64,000 nt of DNA from Heterostelium album PN500 (Eukaryota; Evosea; Eumycetozoa; Acytosteliales; Acytosteliaceae): assembly GCF_000004825.1 (NCBI RefSeq), contig NW_008805085.1:744001-808000 (forward strand), read 5' to 3'. The translations under genes were made by a program, and so were the position numbers. Within the stretch, counting starts at the first letter, position 1. The number at the start of each line of letters is the position of its first letter. Below the pieces are notes generated by a model. That model had not been told where the DNA came from. It saw only the letters and a list, made by a program, of their open reading frames with translations, and searched no databases. Below, piece by piece: positions 23,452-50,776 of this stretch.

Positions 23452-23649
23452 ATGGATACAGATACTCCGTTTGTATGTATGGCACACAATAAAAAAAGTT
23501 TTGAGATTCTTTGTTTCAGGTGTAATACTCTATTGTGCCCAAGATGTTGTGCCTCACACAATCACGAAGACACCACTAAAAATCATTATAATCATGTGGA
23601 TGACATCAAGCTGTCTCTTCAAAGACATCTAACCAATAACTATGATATC

Positions 23650-23706
<57 letters not shown>

Positions 23707-25239
23707 TATAGTGACAGTGATAGTAACAATAATAATCAAGTTAATAGTGAAGGACGTAGTAAAGAATGTGATGGTACTACAACTGATTTTATTTTACAAA
23801 AGACCAAAGCAATATGGACAGACTTGAAATCATCGACCATCAGATACCAATCGTTGACATCCACCGAGAAAAGAATCATTAGCTACTTTCAGCGTATAAC
23901 TCAGCTACTTAACAAGCAGGGAAATATTCTAATGGAGCCAATCGTCAAAGAAAAAGAGACCATCTTCGAAAATTTCCAAAAGAGTATCAAAGAACTACAA
24001 CAATTAGTACAAGTATCGAATCTATGTAAGCTTGACAACAGTGAATTTGTCGATCGATCCAATGAACAGAGTGCATTAGACCATCAGAAAAACACTGGCA
24101 ATGGAAGATACAGGATAGAGGAAACTATGGAATCAGTCAAGAACTGTCAAACACTTTTGAAATTCATACAACTCGAGACTGACTTGTTTCCTAAACACTG
24201 TGAAAACAGTGAGGATCTAACTTCACCATATCAAGGCGATATAAATTCTGCGGTGTTGGATAATCTCACAAAAATCTTTATGAAGGAAGAAACCGCTAAA
24301 ACGCGTATGCAATTGTTGGACTACCTCCTTGAAAACAATATGGATACCAGTGGATATGAAGAGTTGATAGAGCAATCGATTAGAATCACTACAAAGCCAA
24401 TTGAAAAGCCAAGATCCTATATTTTATCAACACTAGCAGAAACCGGTGCAACTCTGATTGATGTTTCCAGCAATTCAGTAGAGGAACTGAGCTCACAATA
24501 CAACCTATGTGGTGCAATGGTAAAGGCCGGAGATTCCATTTATGTATTCGGTGGTGGCGGTGAGAATCAAAAGGATGAGAATAAATACTTTAAATTCTCT
24601 ACTCAGACAATGTCGTTGGTAGCTGCCCAAGAAATGAAAGAAGTTTATCTCGGGGAAATGCTTTCTGCCTGCTATGATGGACATGACCATATTTACATTA
24701 TCAGTAACTTCAACAAAACCAGTATCCACAGGTTCAATATTAAAACATCGAAATATGAATGTTGCCACAAACCCTTCGCCATAGGAGATCTATCCAAGGT
24801 AATTCTATCGTTCTTCTATAAAGGAATGCTGTACATTTTACCAAAGGATACACACACTCTCCAATTCTTCAATCCTACAGGACTAAAAAGAAGGTTAGAG
24901 GATTGTCACACATTCTCAAACGGTGGAGATAAGCCAGTGGCAGCCTGTACCGATGGTCATGGAAATATCTATATTTTCTACCCCAAGGATTTCATTAGAT
25001 TCAATATCGACACAAAGGTCAAAAGCCAGATTAACTCAATATTAAAATATTCCATTGATGCTAAATTGTCATTGACCTATCACTCTAATCCAAAAGAGAT
25101 TGGTGGCGAATGTATTTATATTGTTGGTGAAGGTGTTATCAGGTATTCAATAGAATCAAAACAATTTACACAAATTATAGGTGATTTTCAATATAGTAGA
25201 AGTGTTTGTTCATCCATTATTATAGATCAAAAGAATTAA
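23452..25239 (+). CDS. B-box zinc finger / kelch-like protein (tandem copy 1)
   Basis: Single exon, 595 residues. A B-box zinc finger lies at the N-terminus (C9, H12, C21, C24, C29, C32, H36 and further His). Next comes a poly-Asn run (about residues 67-87, an AAT repeat), then a helical coiled-coil region containing YQSLTSTEKRIISYFQRIT. From about residue 320 a kelch-like propeller follows, with repeats such as GDSIYVFGGGGE, ACYDGHDHIYIISNFN, ACTDGHGNIYIFYPKD and GECIYIVGEG. The order matches a dictyostelid-expanded TRIM-like family without a RING. The function is unknown; it is probably cytosolic. The gene lies 189 bases upstream of its tandem paralogue at 25429. Confidence 0.88.
23650..23706 (+). 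repeat. (AAT)n microsatellite coding poly-Asn
   Basis: An uninterrupted AAT repeat of about 19 units inside the B-box gene, coding asparagine. The run is probably length-variable between strains. Confidence 0.9.
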
Positions 25240-25428: not shown

Positions 25429-27129
25429 ATGGAAAGAGATAATTTTTTAGGATTAGAGTGTAATCACTTTAAGAAATATAAAATTCTTTGTACTGAGTGC
25501 AAACAAATAATGTGCTCATGTTGTTACACTCTTCATAATAATAGAATTAAACATGAAACAAATAACTATAGCAATCATATTAATACAATTATTGAATCAC
25601 TTCAAAAACATTTCAGTACCGATTTAAATAATAATAATTTTAAGAATGATAATAATGAAAAAAGTCGAGGTAGTAGTAAAGTAGATAGTTCAACCAACCG
25701 TGACTATATAACAGAGAGAAGAAATTTACTCTGGAATACTTTGAAATCTTCTACAAGTAGATATCAGTCATTGACGTCAACCGAGAAAAGGATCTCACAA
25801 TATTTCAGGGATGTTGTAAATGCTATTGTTGCAGAGGAAAAAAAAATAAGTGGTCCTATCGGTAAAGAAAAAGATGACATCATCAAGGAAATCAACCATT
25901 CTATCAATGAATTGAAATACCTAGTAAACATTGCCAATCTCTGTCTTATTGAACCAATTGACCAAGAGAATGAATCGCAATCCTCCACATTCAACAGTGA
26001 AATACAACCATTTCATGTCAATGAACAGCCGGACTCCAATGGTCGATATTTGGCAGAGGGTATAATGAATTCAATAAAAGAGTGTCAAACACTTCGCTCC
26101 TTTCTCCACTCCAACAGAGACTCGCTCTTTAATGAATACAGCTACAATCTTGCCGACCTGACCTCCATTTATCAAGGTGATATCAGAGCGATGATAATGG
26201 ATAATATCAACAAATATTGTAGTTATTTCGACTTTCCCAAAGAATCAGAGTTGTCTCCGGTGAATTACAATGTAGAGACCAATCTGGATATCGATCGCTT
26301 CGTAGAACTGATGCAATCGTCAATCAAACTATCACAACCAAAGGAGAATAACTCATATATTTTCTCGACACTAGATACAACTGGTGCAACACTGATCCAC
26401 ATGAAATCCAACACCGTCGAAGAGATTCCAACTCATTCAAACTTGAGCGGAGCGCTGGTGCCAGTTGGTGATACTATCTATATTTTCGGAGGAACCGACC
26501 ACTTGAGTATGAATAAGTTCTTTAGATTCTCAGTGGACTTTAATAAAACATTGGTGGCCGGAGAGATGAAGAATATCGATCTTGAAAGAGGCATTTCAGC
26601 GTGCTACGATGGCAAAGAACATATCTATATCCTAAGTAACTTTAACGACACCGGTATACATCGATTCAATACCCAAACAATGATCTTTGAAAGATGTGAT
26701 TCACATGATAAATACAATGGTTTTATCATTCTGTCATTCTTTTACAAAGAAAAACTATATTTCATTACCAAAGAGGATTGCGCAATTAGAACACTAGATC
26801 CAAAGAATGGAAAGATTGAACTTTTTAATAGCTTCCCTAGTTTCCTTAGACTCAACCCAGTGGCAGCATGTACCGATGGTCATGGAAACATCTATATCTA
26901 TGAAATAGACATGTTCTTTTGCTTCAATGTCGATTCGAAATCGAGTGCCGATCTTAAATTTCAAAAAATTCCTCTTCCATTGTCGTTGGCTTACCACCAA
27001 GACGGGTATATTTACGTTGTCGGTAATGGCTGTATCAGATATTCAATTGAATACAACGAATGGGTACAGATACTATCGGAGACTGACTATAATAGAAATG
27101 TTTGGTCATCTACTATCATTGTACTATAA
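25429..27129 (+). CDS. B-box zinc finger / kelch-like protein (tandem copy 2)
   Basis: Single exon, 566 residues, directly downstream of its paralogue on the same strand. The B-box uses C11, H13, C21, C24, C29, C32 and later His. The helical middle shares STSRYQSLTSTEKRI with copy 1 almost exactly. The propeller repeats correspond one by one (GDTIYIFGGTDH, ACYDGKEHIYILSNFN, ACTDGHGNIYIYEID, DGYIYVVGNGCIRYSIEYNEW). The poly-Asn run of copy 1 is replaced by a shorter Asn/Lys stretch. Conservation is higher in the propeller than in the linker, suggesting that the propeller binds a ligand. The two arose by tandem duplication; I cannot assign a specific role. Confidence 0.88.
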   Translation: MERDNFLGLECNHFKKYKILCTECKQIMCSCCYTLHNNRIKHETNNYSNHINTIIESLQKHFSTDLNNNNFKNDNNEKSRGSSKVDSSTNRDYITERRNLLWNTLKSSTSRYQSLTSTEKRISQYFRDVVNAIVAEEKKISGPIGKEKDDIIKEINHSINELKYLVNIANLCLIEPIDQENESQSSTFNSEIQPFHVNEQPDSNGRYLAEGIMNSIKECQTLRSFLHSNRDSLFNEYSYNLADLTSIYQGDIRAMIMDNINKYCSYFDFPKESELSPVNYNVETNLDIDRFVELMQSSIKLSQPKENNSYIFSTLDTTGATLIHMKSNTVEEIPTHSNLSGALVPVGDTIYIFGGTDHLSMNKFFRFSVDFNKTLVAGEMKNIDLERGISACYDGKEHIYILSNFNDTGIHRFNTQTMIFERCDSHDKYNGFIILSFFYKEKLYFITKEDCAIRTLDPKNGKIELFNSFPSFLRLNPVAACTDGHGNIYIYEIDMFFCFNVDSKSSADLKFQKIPLPLSLAYHQDGYIYVVGNGCIRYSIEYNEWVQILSETDYNRNVWSSTIIVL

Positions 27130-36570: not shown

Positions 36571-36979
36571 TTTTATTTATATCAAGATATTTATAATAAA
36601 TAGTATTATTATTTAAATATATATATATATTGTTTAAGATTTATATTATTGATCAAGAAATAATAATACAAAAAAATCTTTCATTTGTAACAAAATTTAA
36701 TTTGTTTATTATTTTTTCTTAATAAGGAAATGTTTCTAATTTTGGAATAGGAAGATGGTAATTCATATTTTTTGGAATTTAAATTAAACTTTATAAAGTT
36801 TTGAACTTCATTCGGAAAGTAACTTCTATTTATTAATATTATTTAAATCTTATGAATAAATTGATTTTACTGATATAATAGATTATTAAAATTTCAACAA
36901 TTAAAAATTATTTATTTTTTTTTTTGTTTATTTGAGTTTATTGAGATGTTATTATTCATTTGTTTTTATAATCTGTAAA
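36571..36979. other. divergent promoter region
   Basis: AT-rich spacer between the PPQQGY gene and ESS2. An in-frame upstream ATG at 36932 exists but would add a hydrophobic stretch not expected in ESS2, so it is treated as leader. Confidence 0.5.
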
Positions 36980-38434
36980 ATGAGTACTAGCAATAATAAT
37001 AGACAAATAATAAATATAAATAAAGTAAATGAGCAAGAGGAAGAAGACGAGCAAGATAAATCTGTAGTTTTAGAGGAGGAGAAATATGTAGATTCTTTAT
37101 CGCGTATCATTCAGAGGGATTACTTCCCTGATTTACCAAATCTAAAGAGTCAGTTGGAGTGGATCGATGCAGTAGAGTCTAACGATATATCAAGAATGCA
37201 ATCCATTCAATTGCAATCAATAAGAAGACTAAACACATCGATAAGACAACAAAACAGTGTTAGACAACGTTTGCATACCAACCAATCGTTTGATACTCCT
37301 TCAACTTTTGGTGATTCAACACCCAGTAGTAATAACATTCAACAAACACCTTTAAATAGTAATAATAATAATGTAAATAGTAATAATAGTATACAACAAC
37401 AACAACAACAACAACATGAACAAAAAGATATAATAGATGGTATTAGTTTAGATCAATTCGTTGCGAATTACAAGAGTGAAGATGATGCTAGTTATAATGA
37501 AATAGCAAAGAAAAACAAGTTAGAGAATAATCAAAAGTATAAATGGATGGAAGATGCATCTTTGAAGCAGAATCAACAATTGTTGTTACTGGAGGATAAC
37601 GCCAAGAATGCACCTGACACATGGAATCATACGGTTCGAAACAGATTGATGTACTACCCAGAGGGCAAAACAAAGTCAACAGTCGATCCTTCAAATATTA
37701 TGGGTCCACCGAAAGAGATTGTTCGTGAGAATACAAGAATATCAGTAGATTTGAAAGAACGACAGAAGGCGGCAGCTCAGAAGCAGGCCGACGCCACACC
37801 GTTCCACTCACTGTCGCTACCCGAACAGTTGGCTCGACTACAAAGAATGGAACAAGACGGACACAAAGTAGATGCATCCACTCTTGGATTGCTGTCAACA
37901 CCACAGCTGACGCCAAGCAATCTCCAAGCGGACTATGGTGAGTCGCCTCTCATGACTTGGGGACACATCGATGGAACACCGCTACTCCTCCCTAATAATC
38001 CAATATCAACACCACTCAACATAACAGGTTCATCAAGAGGATCATTTAAAATACCAGAGACACAACTTAGAGAGAAGATTGCACATTCATTAGCTGATAA
38101 ATCAACAAATAACAACAATAATAATAATAACAAGACAAGAACAACAACAACACCGGGAACATCAATAACATCACTTTCACCAGCAGCTCAAAAACTACTA
38201 TCGATTAGATCACCTCACCTTTTAAATAAATCACCGTTACTGAAAGATCAACAACTTAGAAAGAGTTACCAACAATCACCAAAAAATAGTACACCTAGTA
38301 AACAAAAGAATCTATTAACGCCAACACCCAATCGATCATCATCAACAAAGTCATCATTGTCAACACCCAAACAAGATATAAATTCAACACCAAAGAGAGA
38401 GAAACATATCACAGATGATCTTTTAAATTTCTAA
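36980..38434 (+). CDS. ess2: ESS2/DGCR14 splicing-associated protein
   Basis: Single exon; 484 residues from the chosen start MSTSNNNRQI at 36980. Family blocks: LEEEKYVDSLSRIIQRDYFPDLPNLKSQLEWIDAV, LDQFVANYKSEDDASYNEI, YKWMEDAS, NHTVRNRLMYYPEG, TPFHSLSLPEQLARLQRM, and PLMTWGHIDGTPL with RGSFKIPETQLREKIAHSL. ESS2 is a nuclear protein found with the catalytic (C-complex) spliceosome. The C-terminal tail is Ser/Thr/Pro/Asn-rich with poly-Asn. An upstream in-frame ATG at 36932 was not used because the extra MSLLRCYYSFVFIICK does not fit a nuclear protein and starts in AT-rich leader. Confidence 0.9.
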   Translation: MSTSNNNRQIININKVNEQEEEDEQDKSVVLEEEKYVDSLSRIIQRDYFPDLPNLKSQLEWIDAVESNDISRMQSIQLQSIRRLNTSIRQQNSVRQRLHTNQSFDTPSTFGDSTPSSNNIQQTPLNSNNNNVNSNNSIQQQQQQQHEQKDIIDGISLDQFVANYKSEDDASYNEIAKKNKLENNQKYKWMEDASLKQNQQLLLLEDNAKNAPDTWNHTVRNRLMYYPEGKTKSTVDPSNIMGPPKEIVRENTRISVDLKERQKAAAQKQADATPFHSLSLPEQLARLQRMEQDGHKVDASTLGLLSTPQLTPSNLQADYGESPLMTWGHIDGTPLLLPNNPISTPLNITGSSRGSFKIPETQLREKIAHSLADKSTNNNNNNNNKTRTTTTPGTSITSLSPAAQKLLSIRSPHLLNKSPLLKDQQLRKSYQQSPKNSTPSKQKNLLTPTPNRSSSTKSSLSTPKQDINSTPKREKHITDDLLNF

Positions 38435-41915: not shown

Positions 41916-43712
41916 TTAAATTTGATAGGTAATCGTAGGACACAGACTGTTTTTATATATTTGGTAACTGGAAAAAACATCGGGTAACCATGTATTTGTT
42001 TCGATTGAATATCTTTGAGTTGAAGGTGAACCAAAAAGGAAAATGAAGTGCTCTTTGTCAGATGATCTGTAATAGGTCATTGAAAGTGTTTGTGGCTTGG
42101 CTGCATTGTCCTGTACTTTACTATTAATTTTGACAGGCGAAAGAGTAAATAATTTCATATGATCAAGATTTATACGAATGAATAATTCTTCAGAGTGAAG
42201 AAAGACATTGCCAACGCCATCGGTGCATGCTGCCAGTGTTTCCTTAAATTTGAGTGTCTTAAAGAATTTATGTGTTCCTTTGATTGGATCGAGTATCAAT
42301 ATGTTATCCTGATTTTTCGAGAACGAATAAAACAATCCATTATAAAAAACGGACATAATTTGAGAATTTGCACCAATAAATCTGTGTTGTTGTTCAAATT
42401 TCATTGATTTTATATCATAGAGAGTGATAGTCATCATTTGTAATTTTGGCAATGTCTTGACAAGATATATGTGATTCTTGCCATCATGGCATGCTGATAT
42501 CCAAGAGTTGCTACTATCATCAAGAGGTAACATGTGTATTTTGCCTTTTAATGTTTTTTTTGAGATTATCATGTATTTATCAAGATTGTTTGAACCACCA
42601 AAAACATAGAGATGCTCACCAACTGATACGATTGAACTTTGAGTATTGGTAAAATCAAAGTCAAAGTGAAGGTATTTTGAAGTTTTACTTCTAAAATCCC
42701 AGATAATAGCTCCTTTGTCTTGATGTGCGAAGAATAAATGGGTGTCTGGTAGTAACGGTGGTGAATGTACAAAACCTGGTATACTGTATATATTTTTCAA
42801 GTGAGATGGTTGTTTAATTGAAAGATTGATTGATTGATCTACCACTTGTTTGATCATGGTCGTATTGATTGGTTCAGTGTACAATTGGTAGTCGGGAGGT
42901 GGATTGGGTTTGACATATGATTTCTTAAACTGTTGATTATACATTTGAATTGAATGTAGAATCAGTGACTCTATATCTTTGTATGATGACCTGCCATTGC
43001 ACCCACTAATATCGAATACTGTTTTATCTTTTGATTCGATAAAACATAAAAGTGAATGGTTACGATCAAGTGACTCCATGATTGATTCTATTGAATAGCT
43101 GTCTGTTGTATCTGCAGAGTTATTATAATCATCTTCATCACTCTTGTCACTAGATTGATCAATATCGGACTCATATCTGGTACTACCTTCTAAATTGATG
43201 ATATTAACGATATGTTTTAACTCTTCAATATTATTCTTGATTGTCTCGAGTGTCTTTGATTTACTTTCTTGGATTGGTTGCTGATAACGTTGCTCTTCAA
43301 CAACCAGATATTGATGCATCTGATGAAAGTGGTCCTTGATCTCTGATTCAGTTGATTCTAACTTTCTGAAATATGAATTTGATGATTTGATTGTTTCCCA
43401 TACTTCTAATATTCTATTTTTTTCAAATATACTTTTACTATTATTATTTTTGTTATTATTATTTTCAGTTGTTAGTTTTTCTAATAATAATGACTCTGAA
43501 TGTGATTGATATTTATATAATGATTGTTTGATATCATTGATATGATCACAAAAGCTATTGTGTTCATATTGTTTATTATGATCTGTGGAGCATTTTGAAC
43601 ACAATAATAGATTACATTGATGACAAATGATTTCAAATGTTTTTCTATGATCTAAACAAACAAAGTCATTGTCATCTGTATCTATATCTATTGAAATATT
43701 TAGACTACTCAT
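41916..43712 (-). CDS. B-box zinc finger / kelch-like protein
   Basis: Single exon, 598 residues. The B-box uses C19, H22, C30, C33, C38, C41 and H45 (DFVCLDHRKTFEIICHQCNL). A helical middle follows (YFRKLESTESEIKDHFHQM, NNIEELKHIVNIINLEG), with an acidic Ser/Asp stretch. The kelch-like propeller runs from about residue 320 (SSIVSVGEHLYVFGGSNNLD, ACHDGKNHIYLVK, IMSVFYNGLFYSFSK, ACTDGVGNVFLHSEE, FIFLFGSPSTQRYSIETNTW). It is the intact relative of the dead copy at 14112 and is more distant from the tandem pair at 23452/25429. It is convergent with the mucin-like gene. The role is unknown. Confidence 0.88.
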   Translation of the reverse strand: MSSLNISIDIDTDDNDFVCLDHRKTFEIICHQCNLLLCSKCSTDHNKQYEHNSFCDHINDIKQSLYKYQSHSESLLLEKLTTENNNNKNNNSKSIFEKNRILEVWETIKSSNSYFRKLESTESEIKDHFHQMHQYLVVEEQRYQQPIQESKSKTLETIKNNIEELKHIVNIINLEGSTRYESDIDQSSDKSDEDDYNNSADTTDSYSIESIMESLDRNHSLLCFIESKDKTVFDISGCNGRSSYKDIESLILHSIQMYNQQFKKSYVKPNPPPDYQLYTEPINTTMIKQVVDQSINLSIKQPSHLKNIYSIPGFVHSPPLLPDTHLFFAHQDKGAIIWDFRSKTSKYLHFDFDFTNTQSSIVSVGEHLYVFGGSNNLDKYMIISKKTLKGKIHMLPLDDSSNSWISACHDGKNHIYLVKTLPKLQMMTITLYDIKSMKFEQQHRFIGANSQIMSVFYNGLFYSFSKNQDNILILDPIKGTHKFFKTLKFKETLAACTDGVGNVFLHSEELFIRINLDHMKLFTLSPVKINSKVQDNAAKPQTLSMTYYRSSDKEHFIFLFGSPSTQRYSIETNTWLPDVFSSYQIYKNSLCPTITYQI

Positions 43713-49325: not shown

Positions 49326-50776
49326 TTAAAAAGCTGGCAATCCTTTCAAGTTTGGTGTGGCCCAAGCACAGTCTAATTCGATACCCAAGTTTTCGAATGG
49401 ACTACCTCTGACGATTCTGAAGAAACCTTGCTCTCCGTAGTACATTCCCCATGAATTTCTGACAATCCAATATGATTCACCATTCTCTTCTCCCCAACCA
49501 ACAATACTGACGATGTGATTTGGAATTGGAACTGCTACAAACTCTTTAAAAATACCACCAGTGTAACTTTCTAATTTATCTGTGGCATCAATAGAGCATG
49601 CCACTGGTCCTGTAAATACAATATATTAGCACTAATATTTAAATAAACAACATAACTAACCAATTAACTTACCTCTTGCATAAACTTCAGCCATAATTTC
49701 CTTCTCACCACTTACTTTACCAACCTCATCGACGGTAATATTGGTATATCTTTGAATGGCAACGCATGTACCATCTGGGTTGCAGGTTTTACAAGCTGGA
49801 GTACAGGCAAGTCCATTTACAGCTTGATATGGTTGACAGGTTTCGTCGACAATACCACTTTCAGCCATGAATTCATAAGCAGCACGGGGGTCTTTTTGAA
49901 AATGGATTGGATTAAGTCAATTTATATCGATATAGTAACAATTATAATATACTTACCACCACCATCACAAGTTCCACCACCATTACAATTGATCAAATGT
50001 TGTGGAGCCAAATTAACTTGAGGCCAAACAGCACGACGGATAATATTGATTCTGTCACTAAGGGCAGATGTGGAAGCGAAAGCCCAACAGCCACCACTGG
50101 ATGCATCCGTATTATAATGATTAATTCATTGAATTAAGAAATAGTTAGTAAAACATATTCATAAAAAAATTGGATGAAAAAAGGAAAAAAAAATTGGAAA
50201 ATGGAAAATAGAAAAGAGATAGATAAGGATACTTTATCCATCAATAGATAGTTGTAGCTGCTAGCCCTGTCTATACATCTCCATCATAGGTGATAAAGTA
50301 TACTTTATCATAAAATTTTCCAAAGTTGGTAAAGTTTGAGATATGTAGTTATGTAGAAGGATATGAATTGATATTGATACTAACCAATACTAGAATTAAC
50401 TATTAATAATTGTGTTTATAATATCTTTATAAATATTTAACTTACTTGTGGAATGTGCTGATTTCTGTTCATGGTCAAGTAGTTAACACCAGATACATTT
50501 GCCCAACTATTAAAAGTAGAAAAAGATATTATAAATATTAATATTAAAATTTAAAATATTTAAATATTCTACATACTTCCAAGAAGTTGGTACTTCAGTG
50601 ATATATTCACTTGGAAGTGGTGATTTGATTCTGTCTTGGAAGATTTCAGAACTCTTCTTGTAACACTTTTGACGAAGGCTACCACTGAAGACGTTGGTTT
50701 GTTGGTGCTCTTGAATGGCAGAGGCAACAACAGCTAATGCTACAACAGATACTAATAAATAAGCAGCAAATCTCAT
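49326..50776 (-). CDS. ctsZ: cathepsin Z (papain-family cysteine protease)
   Basis: Six exons (50776-50577, 50506-50446, 50389-50385, 50096-49957, 49891-49673, 49609-49326) give 302 residues, close to the family length. Signal peptide [20 protein letters not shown]; short propeptide with an N-terminal Cys segment typical of cathepsin Z; then [40 protein letters not shown] with the catalytic Cys, [48 protein letters not shown] with the catalytic His, and IVRNSWG with Asn. It is a lysosomal carboxypeptidase by family. The third exon is only 5 nt: without it the frame at the active site fails, with it Y-C-G-G-C-W is complete. Exon 5 uses an AAAAAG acceptor. Confidence 0.88.
50291..50310. repeat. 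20-bp perfect palindrome in a cathepsin Z intron
   Basis: TGATAAAGTATACTTTATCA is its own reverse complement. A related GGATACTTTATCC lies at 50227-50239, so the 288-base intron after the micro-exon contains inverted copies of one motif. Confidence 0.85.

What the first reader, a model, noticed from the sequence alone, without database searches (positions are those of the whole stretch)
50385..50389. Five-nucleotide micro-exon rebuilding the cathepsin Z active site
Joining exon 2 (ending HIPQ) directly to the next usable exon (acceptor at 50097-50098) gives a broken frame (W-W-L-L-G) at the catalytic cysteine. Between them the minus strand reads TTCTAG-TATTG-GTTAGT. Splicing in those five bases gives Tyr-Cys and the frame becomes YCGGCWAF, the canonical active-site motif, and the total becomes 303 codons with every other exon in frame. 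A 5-nt exon is near the lower limit of what spliceosomes use. It splits the catalytic block, so skipping would give a dead protease.
Basis: partly seen in the sequence, partly recalled or inferred. Interest (0 to 1): 0.8.

Follow-up and report, generated by a model that had tools for sequence, protein, structure and literature searches.

The report
Five-base exon in slime-mould cathepsin Z
In the slime mould Heterostelium pallidum, the gene for the protein-cutting enzyme cathepsin Z very probably contains an exon of only five letters that the public gene model missed; it is a new example of a known kind of tiny exon, and RNA reads could confirm it.

Summary
On the minus strand, TTCTAG|TATTG|GTTAGT lies at 50395-50379. 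Splicing in 50389-50385 gives HIPQ-YCGGCWAF and a 909-nt CDS of 302 residues; skipping it breaks the frame. The window is from Heterostelium pallidum PN500. NCBI's protein for this gene (P0001) bridges the gap with a 26-nt exon and reads [17 protein letters not shown], without the first Cys. That Cys is present in 119 of 119 other listed homologs (best 120 of 2,486 hits). Of 4,999 enumerated splice paths 153 are open; the 5-nt exon gives the best protein (479.6 bits; NCBI's path 463.5, rank 7), and only paths with it read YCGGCW. AG-TAYTG-GT arises in 14 of 20,000 shuffles and, apart from the locus itself, in 1 of 336 real GT..AG stretches of that length. Against it: the donor GTTAGT is in 0 of 88 filtered intron calls, and no RNA evidence was reachable. 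Exons of 1-7 nt are known in plants, flies and humans, so this is a new member of a known kind. Its origin is open.

The parts
50577..50776 (-). Exon 1 of cathepsin Z (200 nt): start codon, N-terminal region, start of the protease domain (ends ..TGGAA|gtatgt)
   Evidence: same residues in the NCBI protein P0001
50446..50506 (-). Exon 2 (61 nt), ends ..RNQHIPQ at CCACAA|gtaagt
50390..50445 (-). Intron 2a, 56 nt, GTAAGT..TTCTAG
   Evidence: 15 of 88 filtered intron calls of a rough gene finder are 56 nt or shorter
50385..50389 (-). Micro-exon 3, TATTG: Tyr88 and the first two bases of Cys89
   Evidence: Cys present in 119 of 119 other listed homologs
50097..50384 (-). Intron 2b, 288 nt, GTTAGT..ATCCAG; TACTAAC at 50150-50144 is a branch-like motif and the next AG downstream is the exon-4 acceptor
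50277..50302 (-). 26-nt stretch that the NCBI model (and the gene finder) uses as exon 3; judged a false exon
49957..50096 (-). Exon 4 (140 nt), starts with the last base of Cys89; carries catalytic Cys92 (GGCWAF)
49673..49891 (-). Exon 5 (219 nt)
49326..49609 (-). Exon 6 (284 nt) with the stop codon; regions of the catalytic His and Asn (NHIVS, RNSWG)
50362..50384 (-). First 23 nt of intron 2b: can pair with the stretch holding the branch-like motif (about 50163-50144); GUUAGUA is the exact complement of UACUAAC

Best explanation
The Heterostelium pallidum cathepsin Z gene contains a 5-nt internal exon, TATTG, that is normally included in the mRNA. The spliceosome removes a short 56-nt intron and a 288-nt intron on either side of it. 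Because 5 nt is unlikely to hold both splice-site complexes at once, the two introns are probably removed one after the other, most likely the short one first, which joins the 5 nt to exon 2 and leaves an ordinary exon end for the second step. Inclusion is needed for the frame: skipping gives a stop 12 codons after HIPQ, before the active-site block is made. Shown here: the sequence, the frame, uniqueness among the enumerated splice paths, conservation of the encoded Cys, and the odd public model. Inferred: inclusion in mRNA, constitutive use, and order of splicing.
For: Exact GT-AG flanks and frame. Enumeration of 4,999 paths with 0-2 introns (GT or GC donors, AG acceptors, introns of 25 nt or more): 153 open and in frame; the micro-exon path ranks first at 479.6 bits; the best other is 470.2 (a 1-nt exon with one GC donor), NCBI's is 463.5 (rank 7), the best single-intron path 442.4 (GC donor); all 3 paths that read YCGGCW use the micro-exon. 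The Cys is present in 119 of 119 other listed homologs and 113 of 119 read YCGxCW. Pfam Peptidase_C1 scores 174.1 bits and matches the profile from position 1; the NCBI protein scores 162.5 and matches from position 22. Chance is low. The micro-exon donor scores higher than the donor of NCBI's 26-nt exon (35th against 20th percentile) and the two acceptors tie (9th) in a model trained here. A paralogue has a single intron 1 nt from this point and reads QYCGSCW.
Against: No RNA evidence. The donor hexamer GTTAGT is in 0 of 88 filtered intron calls and 2 of all 305 calls of the gene finder. The acceptor scores low (9th percentile), as do three other acceptors of this gene (2nd to 10th), so the acceptor model does not separate the rivals. 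No CTAAY branch-like motif was found in intron 2a. Conservation of the micro-exon in other species could not be tested, and the one close paralogue does without it. The deposited model omits it, though its choice agrees with an ab initio one.
Confidence: 0.87

Rival explanations
1. The deposited model is right: a 26-nt exon (50302-50277) is used, and this species' cathepsin Z has lost the first Cys and gained residues (YTLSPMMEI in place of YC).
For: It is the NCBI protein and it is in frame with GT-AG sites; a gene finder trained on 212 kb of this genome makes the same choice.
Against: 119 of 119 other listed homologs keep the Cys; the path is 16 bits worse by profile; its donor is weaker. 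[quoted passage not shown] PMC5282741 (Results part 1) says the existing P. pallidum models are Augustus predictions, so the model may not rest on RNA; I could not check that for this gene.
Confidence: 0.05
2. The reference lacks five bases: the true sequence is CCAG|TATTGTGGTGG with one ordinary intron, and the TATTG in the intron is coincidence.
For: The paralogue has exactly that arrangement, CAG|GTACTGTGG, with one intron. Base errors causing odd gene models are documented in D. discoideum (PMC5282741, passages).
Against: It needs an exact 5-nt loss plus a coincidence of about 0.1-1%; the D. discoideum examples in the passages seen are single-base errors.
Confidence: 0.05
3. The gene is no longer functional, or another unusual splice path (non-GT-AG, or several products) is used.
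For: The region is odd: a 20-nt perfect palindrome and several imperfect inverted repeats in intron 2b, and a 2-nt exon path that is also open (464.9 bits).
Against: The other exons are open and conserved, and the GT-AG micro-exon needs no special rule. AT-AC and three-intron paths were not enumerated.
Confidence: 0.03

Closest known systems
Ultra-short micro-exons in plants: 1-nt exons of APC11 and VPS55; 5-nt exon of rice Os08t0562700 (PMC4674806, part 1 of 3 read; PMC8831610, passages)
   Same: Too small for annotation pipelines and missing from gene models; AG/GT flanks; the 1-nt APC11 exon is constitutive and required for the frame.
   Different: Those have cDNA or RT-PCR proof, and the 1-nt cases are conserved across land plants; here neither kind of evidence is available, and the host is an amoebozoan.
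Human MPC1 4-bp constitutive micro-exon (PMC9929638, abstract and one section)
   Same: Length not a multiple of three; in the published minigenes both flanking introns leave as separate lariats.
   Different: Inclusion of the MPC1 exon is constitutive by experiment and depends on elements in the flanking introns, mapped by minigenes; none are mapped here.
Drosophila 3-7 nt micro-exons (PMC8042270, abstract and one section)
   Same: Size class and AG/__/GT rule.
   Different: Found from reads and tested by RT-PCR; some micro-exons of the Drosophila set are alternatively spliced.
Cathepsin Z/X (procathepsin X, PDB 1deu)
   Same: RNQHIPQYCGxCW motif and alignment over residues 49-284 at E 2.5e-75.
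   Different: No difference of kind seen in the protein; the unusual part is the gene structure.

Membership tests
Spliceosomal micro-exon | Internal exon of 30 nt or less flanked by AG and GT | tested here: met
   ttctag|TATTG|gttagt
Spliceosomal micro-exon | Included in mature mRNA | not testable with these tools
   No reads or cDNA of this gene held; look-ups in supplementary files are capped at 0
Spliceosomal micro-exon | Inclusion restores a conserved protein sequence | tested here: met
   Only paths with the micro-exon (3) read YCGGCW among 153 open paths
Conserved micro-exon | Same micro-exon in related species or paralogues | tested here: inconclusive
Cathepsin Z/X (papain family C1) | Peptidase_C1 domain | tested here: met
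   174.1 bits, cut-off 20.7
Cathepsin Z/X (papain family C1) | HIP insertion before the active-site Cys block (recalled as typical of cathepsin X), regions of the catalytic Cys, His and Asn | tested here: met
   RNQHIPQYCGGCW, NHIVS and RNSWG align with 1deu
Intron born from an inserted element | Terminal inverted repeats plus flanking duplication in intron 2b, or other copies in the genome | tested here: not met
   Ends of intron 2b no more alike as inverted repeats than shuffles (133 of 500 as good); no direct repeat flanking it and no good copy of the exon start in the intron (best has 5 of 13 mismatches); single match in the genome. The paralogue's intron does have both marks

The most novel reading that the evidence does not exclude
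The micro-exon was made when an inverted-repeat insertion split an exon five bases after its 3' splice site, and the paralogue shows a second, younger case of the same process: its intron at this point holds an exact 13-nt copy of its own acceptor and exon start (CAGGTACTGTGGT), with a perfect 15-nt inverted repeat just inside the two copies. In the cathepsin Z gene the copy upstream became a used 5-nt exon and the downstream one lost those bases. The unusual donor GTTAGTA, the exact complement of the branch-like TACTAAC, may hold the second intron shut until the first is removed, which would set the order of splicing.
Probability: 0.12. Interest if true: 0.6.

Novelty: new member of a known kind. 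Interest (0 to 1): 0.42.

Why it matters
If confirmed, it shows that a social amoeba with short introns uses a 5-nt exon. Six of the nine paper searches made looked for micro-exons or very small exons, five of them with Dictyostelium or Amoebozoa among the terms; judged by titles and abstract starts of the listed papers, none reported such an exon in a dictyostelid. The lists were capped (15 of 25 and 12 of 34), and of the papers naming Dictyostelium or Amoebozoa only PMC5295588 was looked into, where the word is a mapping option. It also points to an error in a deposited enzyme sequence, and suggests that other dictyostelid models with short, poorly conserved inserts at exon joins may hide micro-exons. 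It would give a genetically tractable organism in which to study how a spliceosome handles a 5-nt exon.

Tried and rejected
Single-intron and zero-intron models: the best single-intron path scores 442.4 bits, needs a GC donor and reads NRNHGGCW.

A repeated transposon as source of intron 2b: only the locus itself matched in the 32.9-Mb genome at E up to 0.001, and its palindrome has one other place at 2 mismatches, while the backward control also gave hits.

Shared descent of the focal and paralogue introns: the local alignment score was 38, above 500 of 500 shuffles and above 2,855 of 2,855 real non-coding stretches (maximum 31). I do not rely on it, because predicted introns of two other protease loci (L028, L029) score 32-33 against the focal intron through a common T-rich tract and ACTAA-type motif. 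A 43-nt piece before the T tract scored 22 (0 of 8,565 null stretches as good, maximum 19), but extending it to 54 nt left 5 of 8,565 as good; the piece after the T tract (934 of 8,565 as good), intron 2a (3,146) and the end of intron 2a with the micro-exon (3,322) showed nothing.

Terminal inverted repeats of intron 2b: 133 of 500 shuffles as good. Branch-motif enrichment in this genome: ACTAAY in 8 of 55 introns against a shuffle mean of 3.0 and maximum 8; weak.

The gene finder: two earlier settings gave poor models that joined exon 1 to exon 4 here, and are not used. One search is rough too: 88 of 305 intron calls passed the flank filters, three introns of this gene are among the 88, and it adds a false intron at the end of this gene.

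Structure prediction was not run: the spliced protein is not a contiguous reading of the window, so I did not submit it.

Full report
What is there. The window is G000:C24:744001-808000 of a 32.9-Mb, 39-contig genome. The best protein hit to the spliced gene is NCBI's 'cathepsin Z precursor [Heterostelium album PN500]' at 97% identity (P0001), so the organism is Heterostelium (Polysphondylium) pallidum PN500. On the minus strand the gene has exons 50776-50577, 50506-50446, 50389-50385, 50096-49957, 49891-49673 and 49609-49326. Together they make 909 nt, 302 residues plus stop, with RNQHIPQYCGGCWAF. Without the 5-nt exon the frame reads [16 protein letters not shown] and stops.

What the five bases encode. 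TATTG is Tyr88 and two bases of Cys89; the third base comes from exon 4. The catalytic Cys92 (GGCW) is wholly in exon 4. From general knowledge of papain-type enzymes, the first Cys of CGxCW forms a disulfide and the second is catalytic.

The deposited model. P0001 agrees elsewhere but reads [17 protein letters not shown]. The path behind it is a 26-nt exon at 50302-50277 (rank 7). My own rough gene finder, trained on 212 kb of this genome, chose the same 26-nt exon. A 2017 paper calls the existing P. pallidum models Augustus predictions (PMC5282741, Results part 1). The omission is therefore what an ab initio predictor would be expected to produce. P0001's cluster at 90% identity has one member sequence, so no corrected version was seen there.

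Is another path possible? I enumerated 4,999 paths with zero, one or two introns between exon 2 and exon 4 (27 GT and 12 GC donors, 19 AG acceptors, introns of at least 25 nt). Of these, 153 are open and in frame. They were scored against a profile of 42 homologs (built), those of 250-345 residues among the 119 listed hits other than P0001; 77 were left out by length. The micro-exon path is first at 479.6 bits. The next three (470.2, 469.5, 468.4) need GC donors and do not read YC. All three paths that read YCGGCW contain the micro-exon; the other two shorten exon 2 and score 418.7 and 412.5. AT-AC and three-intron paths were not tried.

Conservation. The search found 2,486 proteins and listed the best 120. 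All 119 listed besides P0001 have the Cys; the residue before it is Tyr in 110, Trp in 7, Asp in 1 and Phe in 1 at the first motif found. YCGxCW occurs in 113 of 119. The four other dictyostelid records that I recognised by name in the list - Acytostelium, Cavenderia, D. discoideum and D. purpureum - all read HIPQYCG. Pfam Peptidase_C1 scores 174.1 bits from profile position 1 with the micro-exon, and 162.5 from position 22 for P0001.

Chance. AG-TAYTG-GT in range occurs in 14 of 20,000 dinucleotide shuffles of the 349-nt stretch. Among real GC-poor GT..AG stretches of the same length it occurs in 2 of 337, one of which is this locus, so in 1 of 336 others (2 of 319, before later loci were added). 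Over all held DNA it occurs 12 times in 424,592 positions, this locus included. Within the stretch, only three AG-N-GT candidates of length 3n+2 up to 32 nt exist: 5, 26 and 2 nt.

Splice signals. In 88 filtered intron calls from 212 kb, GTAAGT (20) and GTATGT (13) lead. The hexamer GTTAGT is in none of the 88 and in 2 of all 305 calls; this counts against the micro-exon, mildly, because T at +3 occurs in 22 of 88. By the position model the donor TTGGTTAGT is at the 35th percentile and the 26-nt-exon donor at the 20th; their acceptors tie at the 9th. Other acceptors of this gene score low (2nd, 7th and 10th) or high (99th), so the acceptor model says little. Introns of 56 nt or less are 15 of 88, and of 250 nt or more 6 of 88. 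In intron 2b, TACTAAC at 50150-50144 is followed by no AG until the exon-4 acceptor (sequence). Intron 2a has no CTAAY motif.

Possible structure. The first 26 nt of intron 2b can pair with its last 110 nt at -13.9 kcal/mol: 2 of 1,000 shuffles reach this (mean -6.0), and 0 of the 15 filtered introns of 140 nt or more. The pairing joins GUUAGUA with UACUAAC. The whole intron folds at z = -2.0, with 5 of 200 shuffles as good. This could hold the second intron until the first is gone, or only bring its ends together; neither is tested.

The paralogue. C3:641655-642998 (L032 2499-1156) encodes a second cathepsin-Z-like protein of 296 residues with HLPQYCGSCW. By reading the exon joins against the protein alignment, its other three introns sit at the same codon positions and phases as those of the focal gene. 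Here it has one 237-nt intron at CA^G TAC TGT, 1 nt from the focal CAA^TAT. That intron holds an exact 13-nt copy of its own acceptor and exon start at L032 2079-2067, and a perfect 15-nt inverted repeat just inside the two copies. The 13-mer has only these two occurrences in the 212 kb held, and the inverted-repeat arm has no other exact copy in the genome, with one further place at 1 mismatch. This looks like an insertion with duplication at nearly the same place. Its link to the micro-exon is conjecture, since the focal intron shows neither duplication nor clear inverted ends.

Mechanism. Published work shows that a 4-bp human exon is constitutive, that in minigenes both flanking introns leave as separate lariats, and that the exon can be cut to zero length (PMC9929638, abstract and one section). 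The simplest reading here is stepwise removal of two GT-AG introns. With introns this short, recognition across the intron is likely (general knowledge); the order (56-nt intron first) is inference.

Verdict. The micro-exon is very probably real and required, and the deposited protein is very probably wrong at the active-site block. It is a new member of a known kind, in a lineage for which the paper searches listed no earlier example (titles and abstract starts, two lists capped). RNA reads would settle it.

Noticed in passing
L032 1920-1932, 2067-2079 and 1935-1949, 2049-2063 (paralogue intron): An exact 13-nt duplication of the acceptor and exon start, with a perfect 15-nt inverted repeat just inside: a probable insertion footprint in the paralogue's active-site intron.
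   Followed up: partly
50384-50362 with about 50163-50144: The 5' end of intron 2b, GTTAGTA, is the exact complement of the branch-like TACTAAC; an extended pairing of 19 bp is predicted.
   Followed up: partly
50291-50310: Perfect 20-nt palindrome TGATAAAGTATACTTTATCA in intron 2b, with a near copy of part of it at 50225-50238; no other exact copy in the genome.
   Followed up: partly
P0001 (NCBI record of this gene): The deposited H. pallidum cathepsin Z sequence appears wrong at YTLSPMMEI.
   Followed up: yes
36932-38431 +: An ORF matching nuclear protein Es2 (Pfam, 224 bits), which I recall as a spliceosome-associated protein, lies about 11 kb from the micro-exon gene.
   Followed up: no
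23452-25239 +, 25429-27129 +, 41916-43712 -: Three ORFs of 566-598 residues with Kelch motifs in one 20-kb stretch, possibly a local gene family.
   Followed up: no
L028 about 2597-2875 and L029 about 2454-2722: Two predicted long introns at protease loci share a T-rich tract plus TTTACTAATACTAT before the acceptor, perhaps a common 3' architecture of long introns here.
   Followed up: partly
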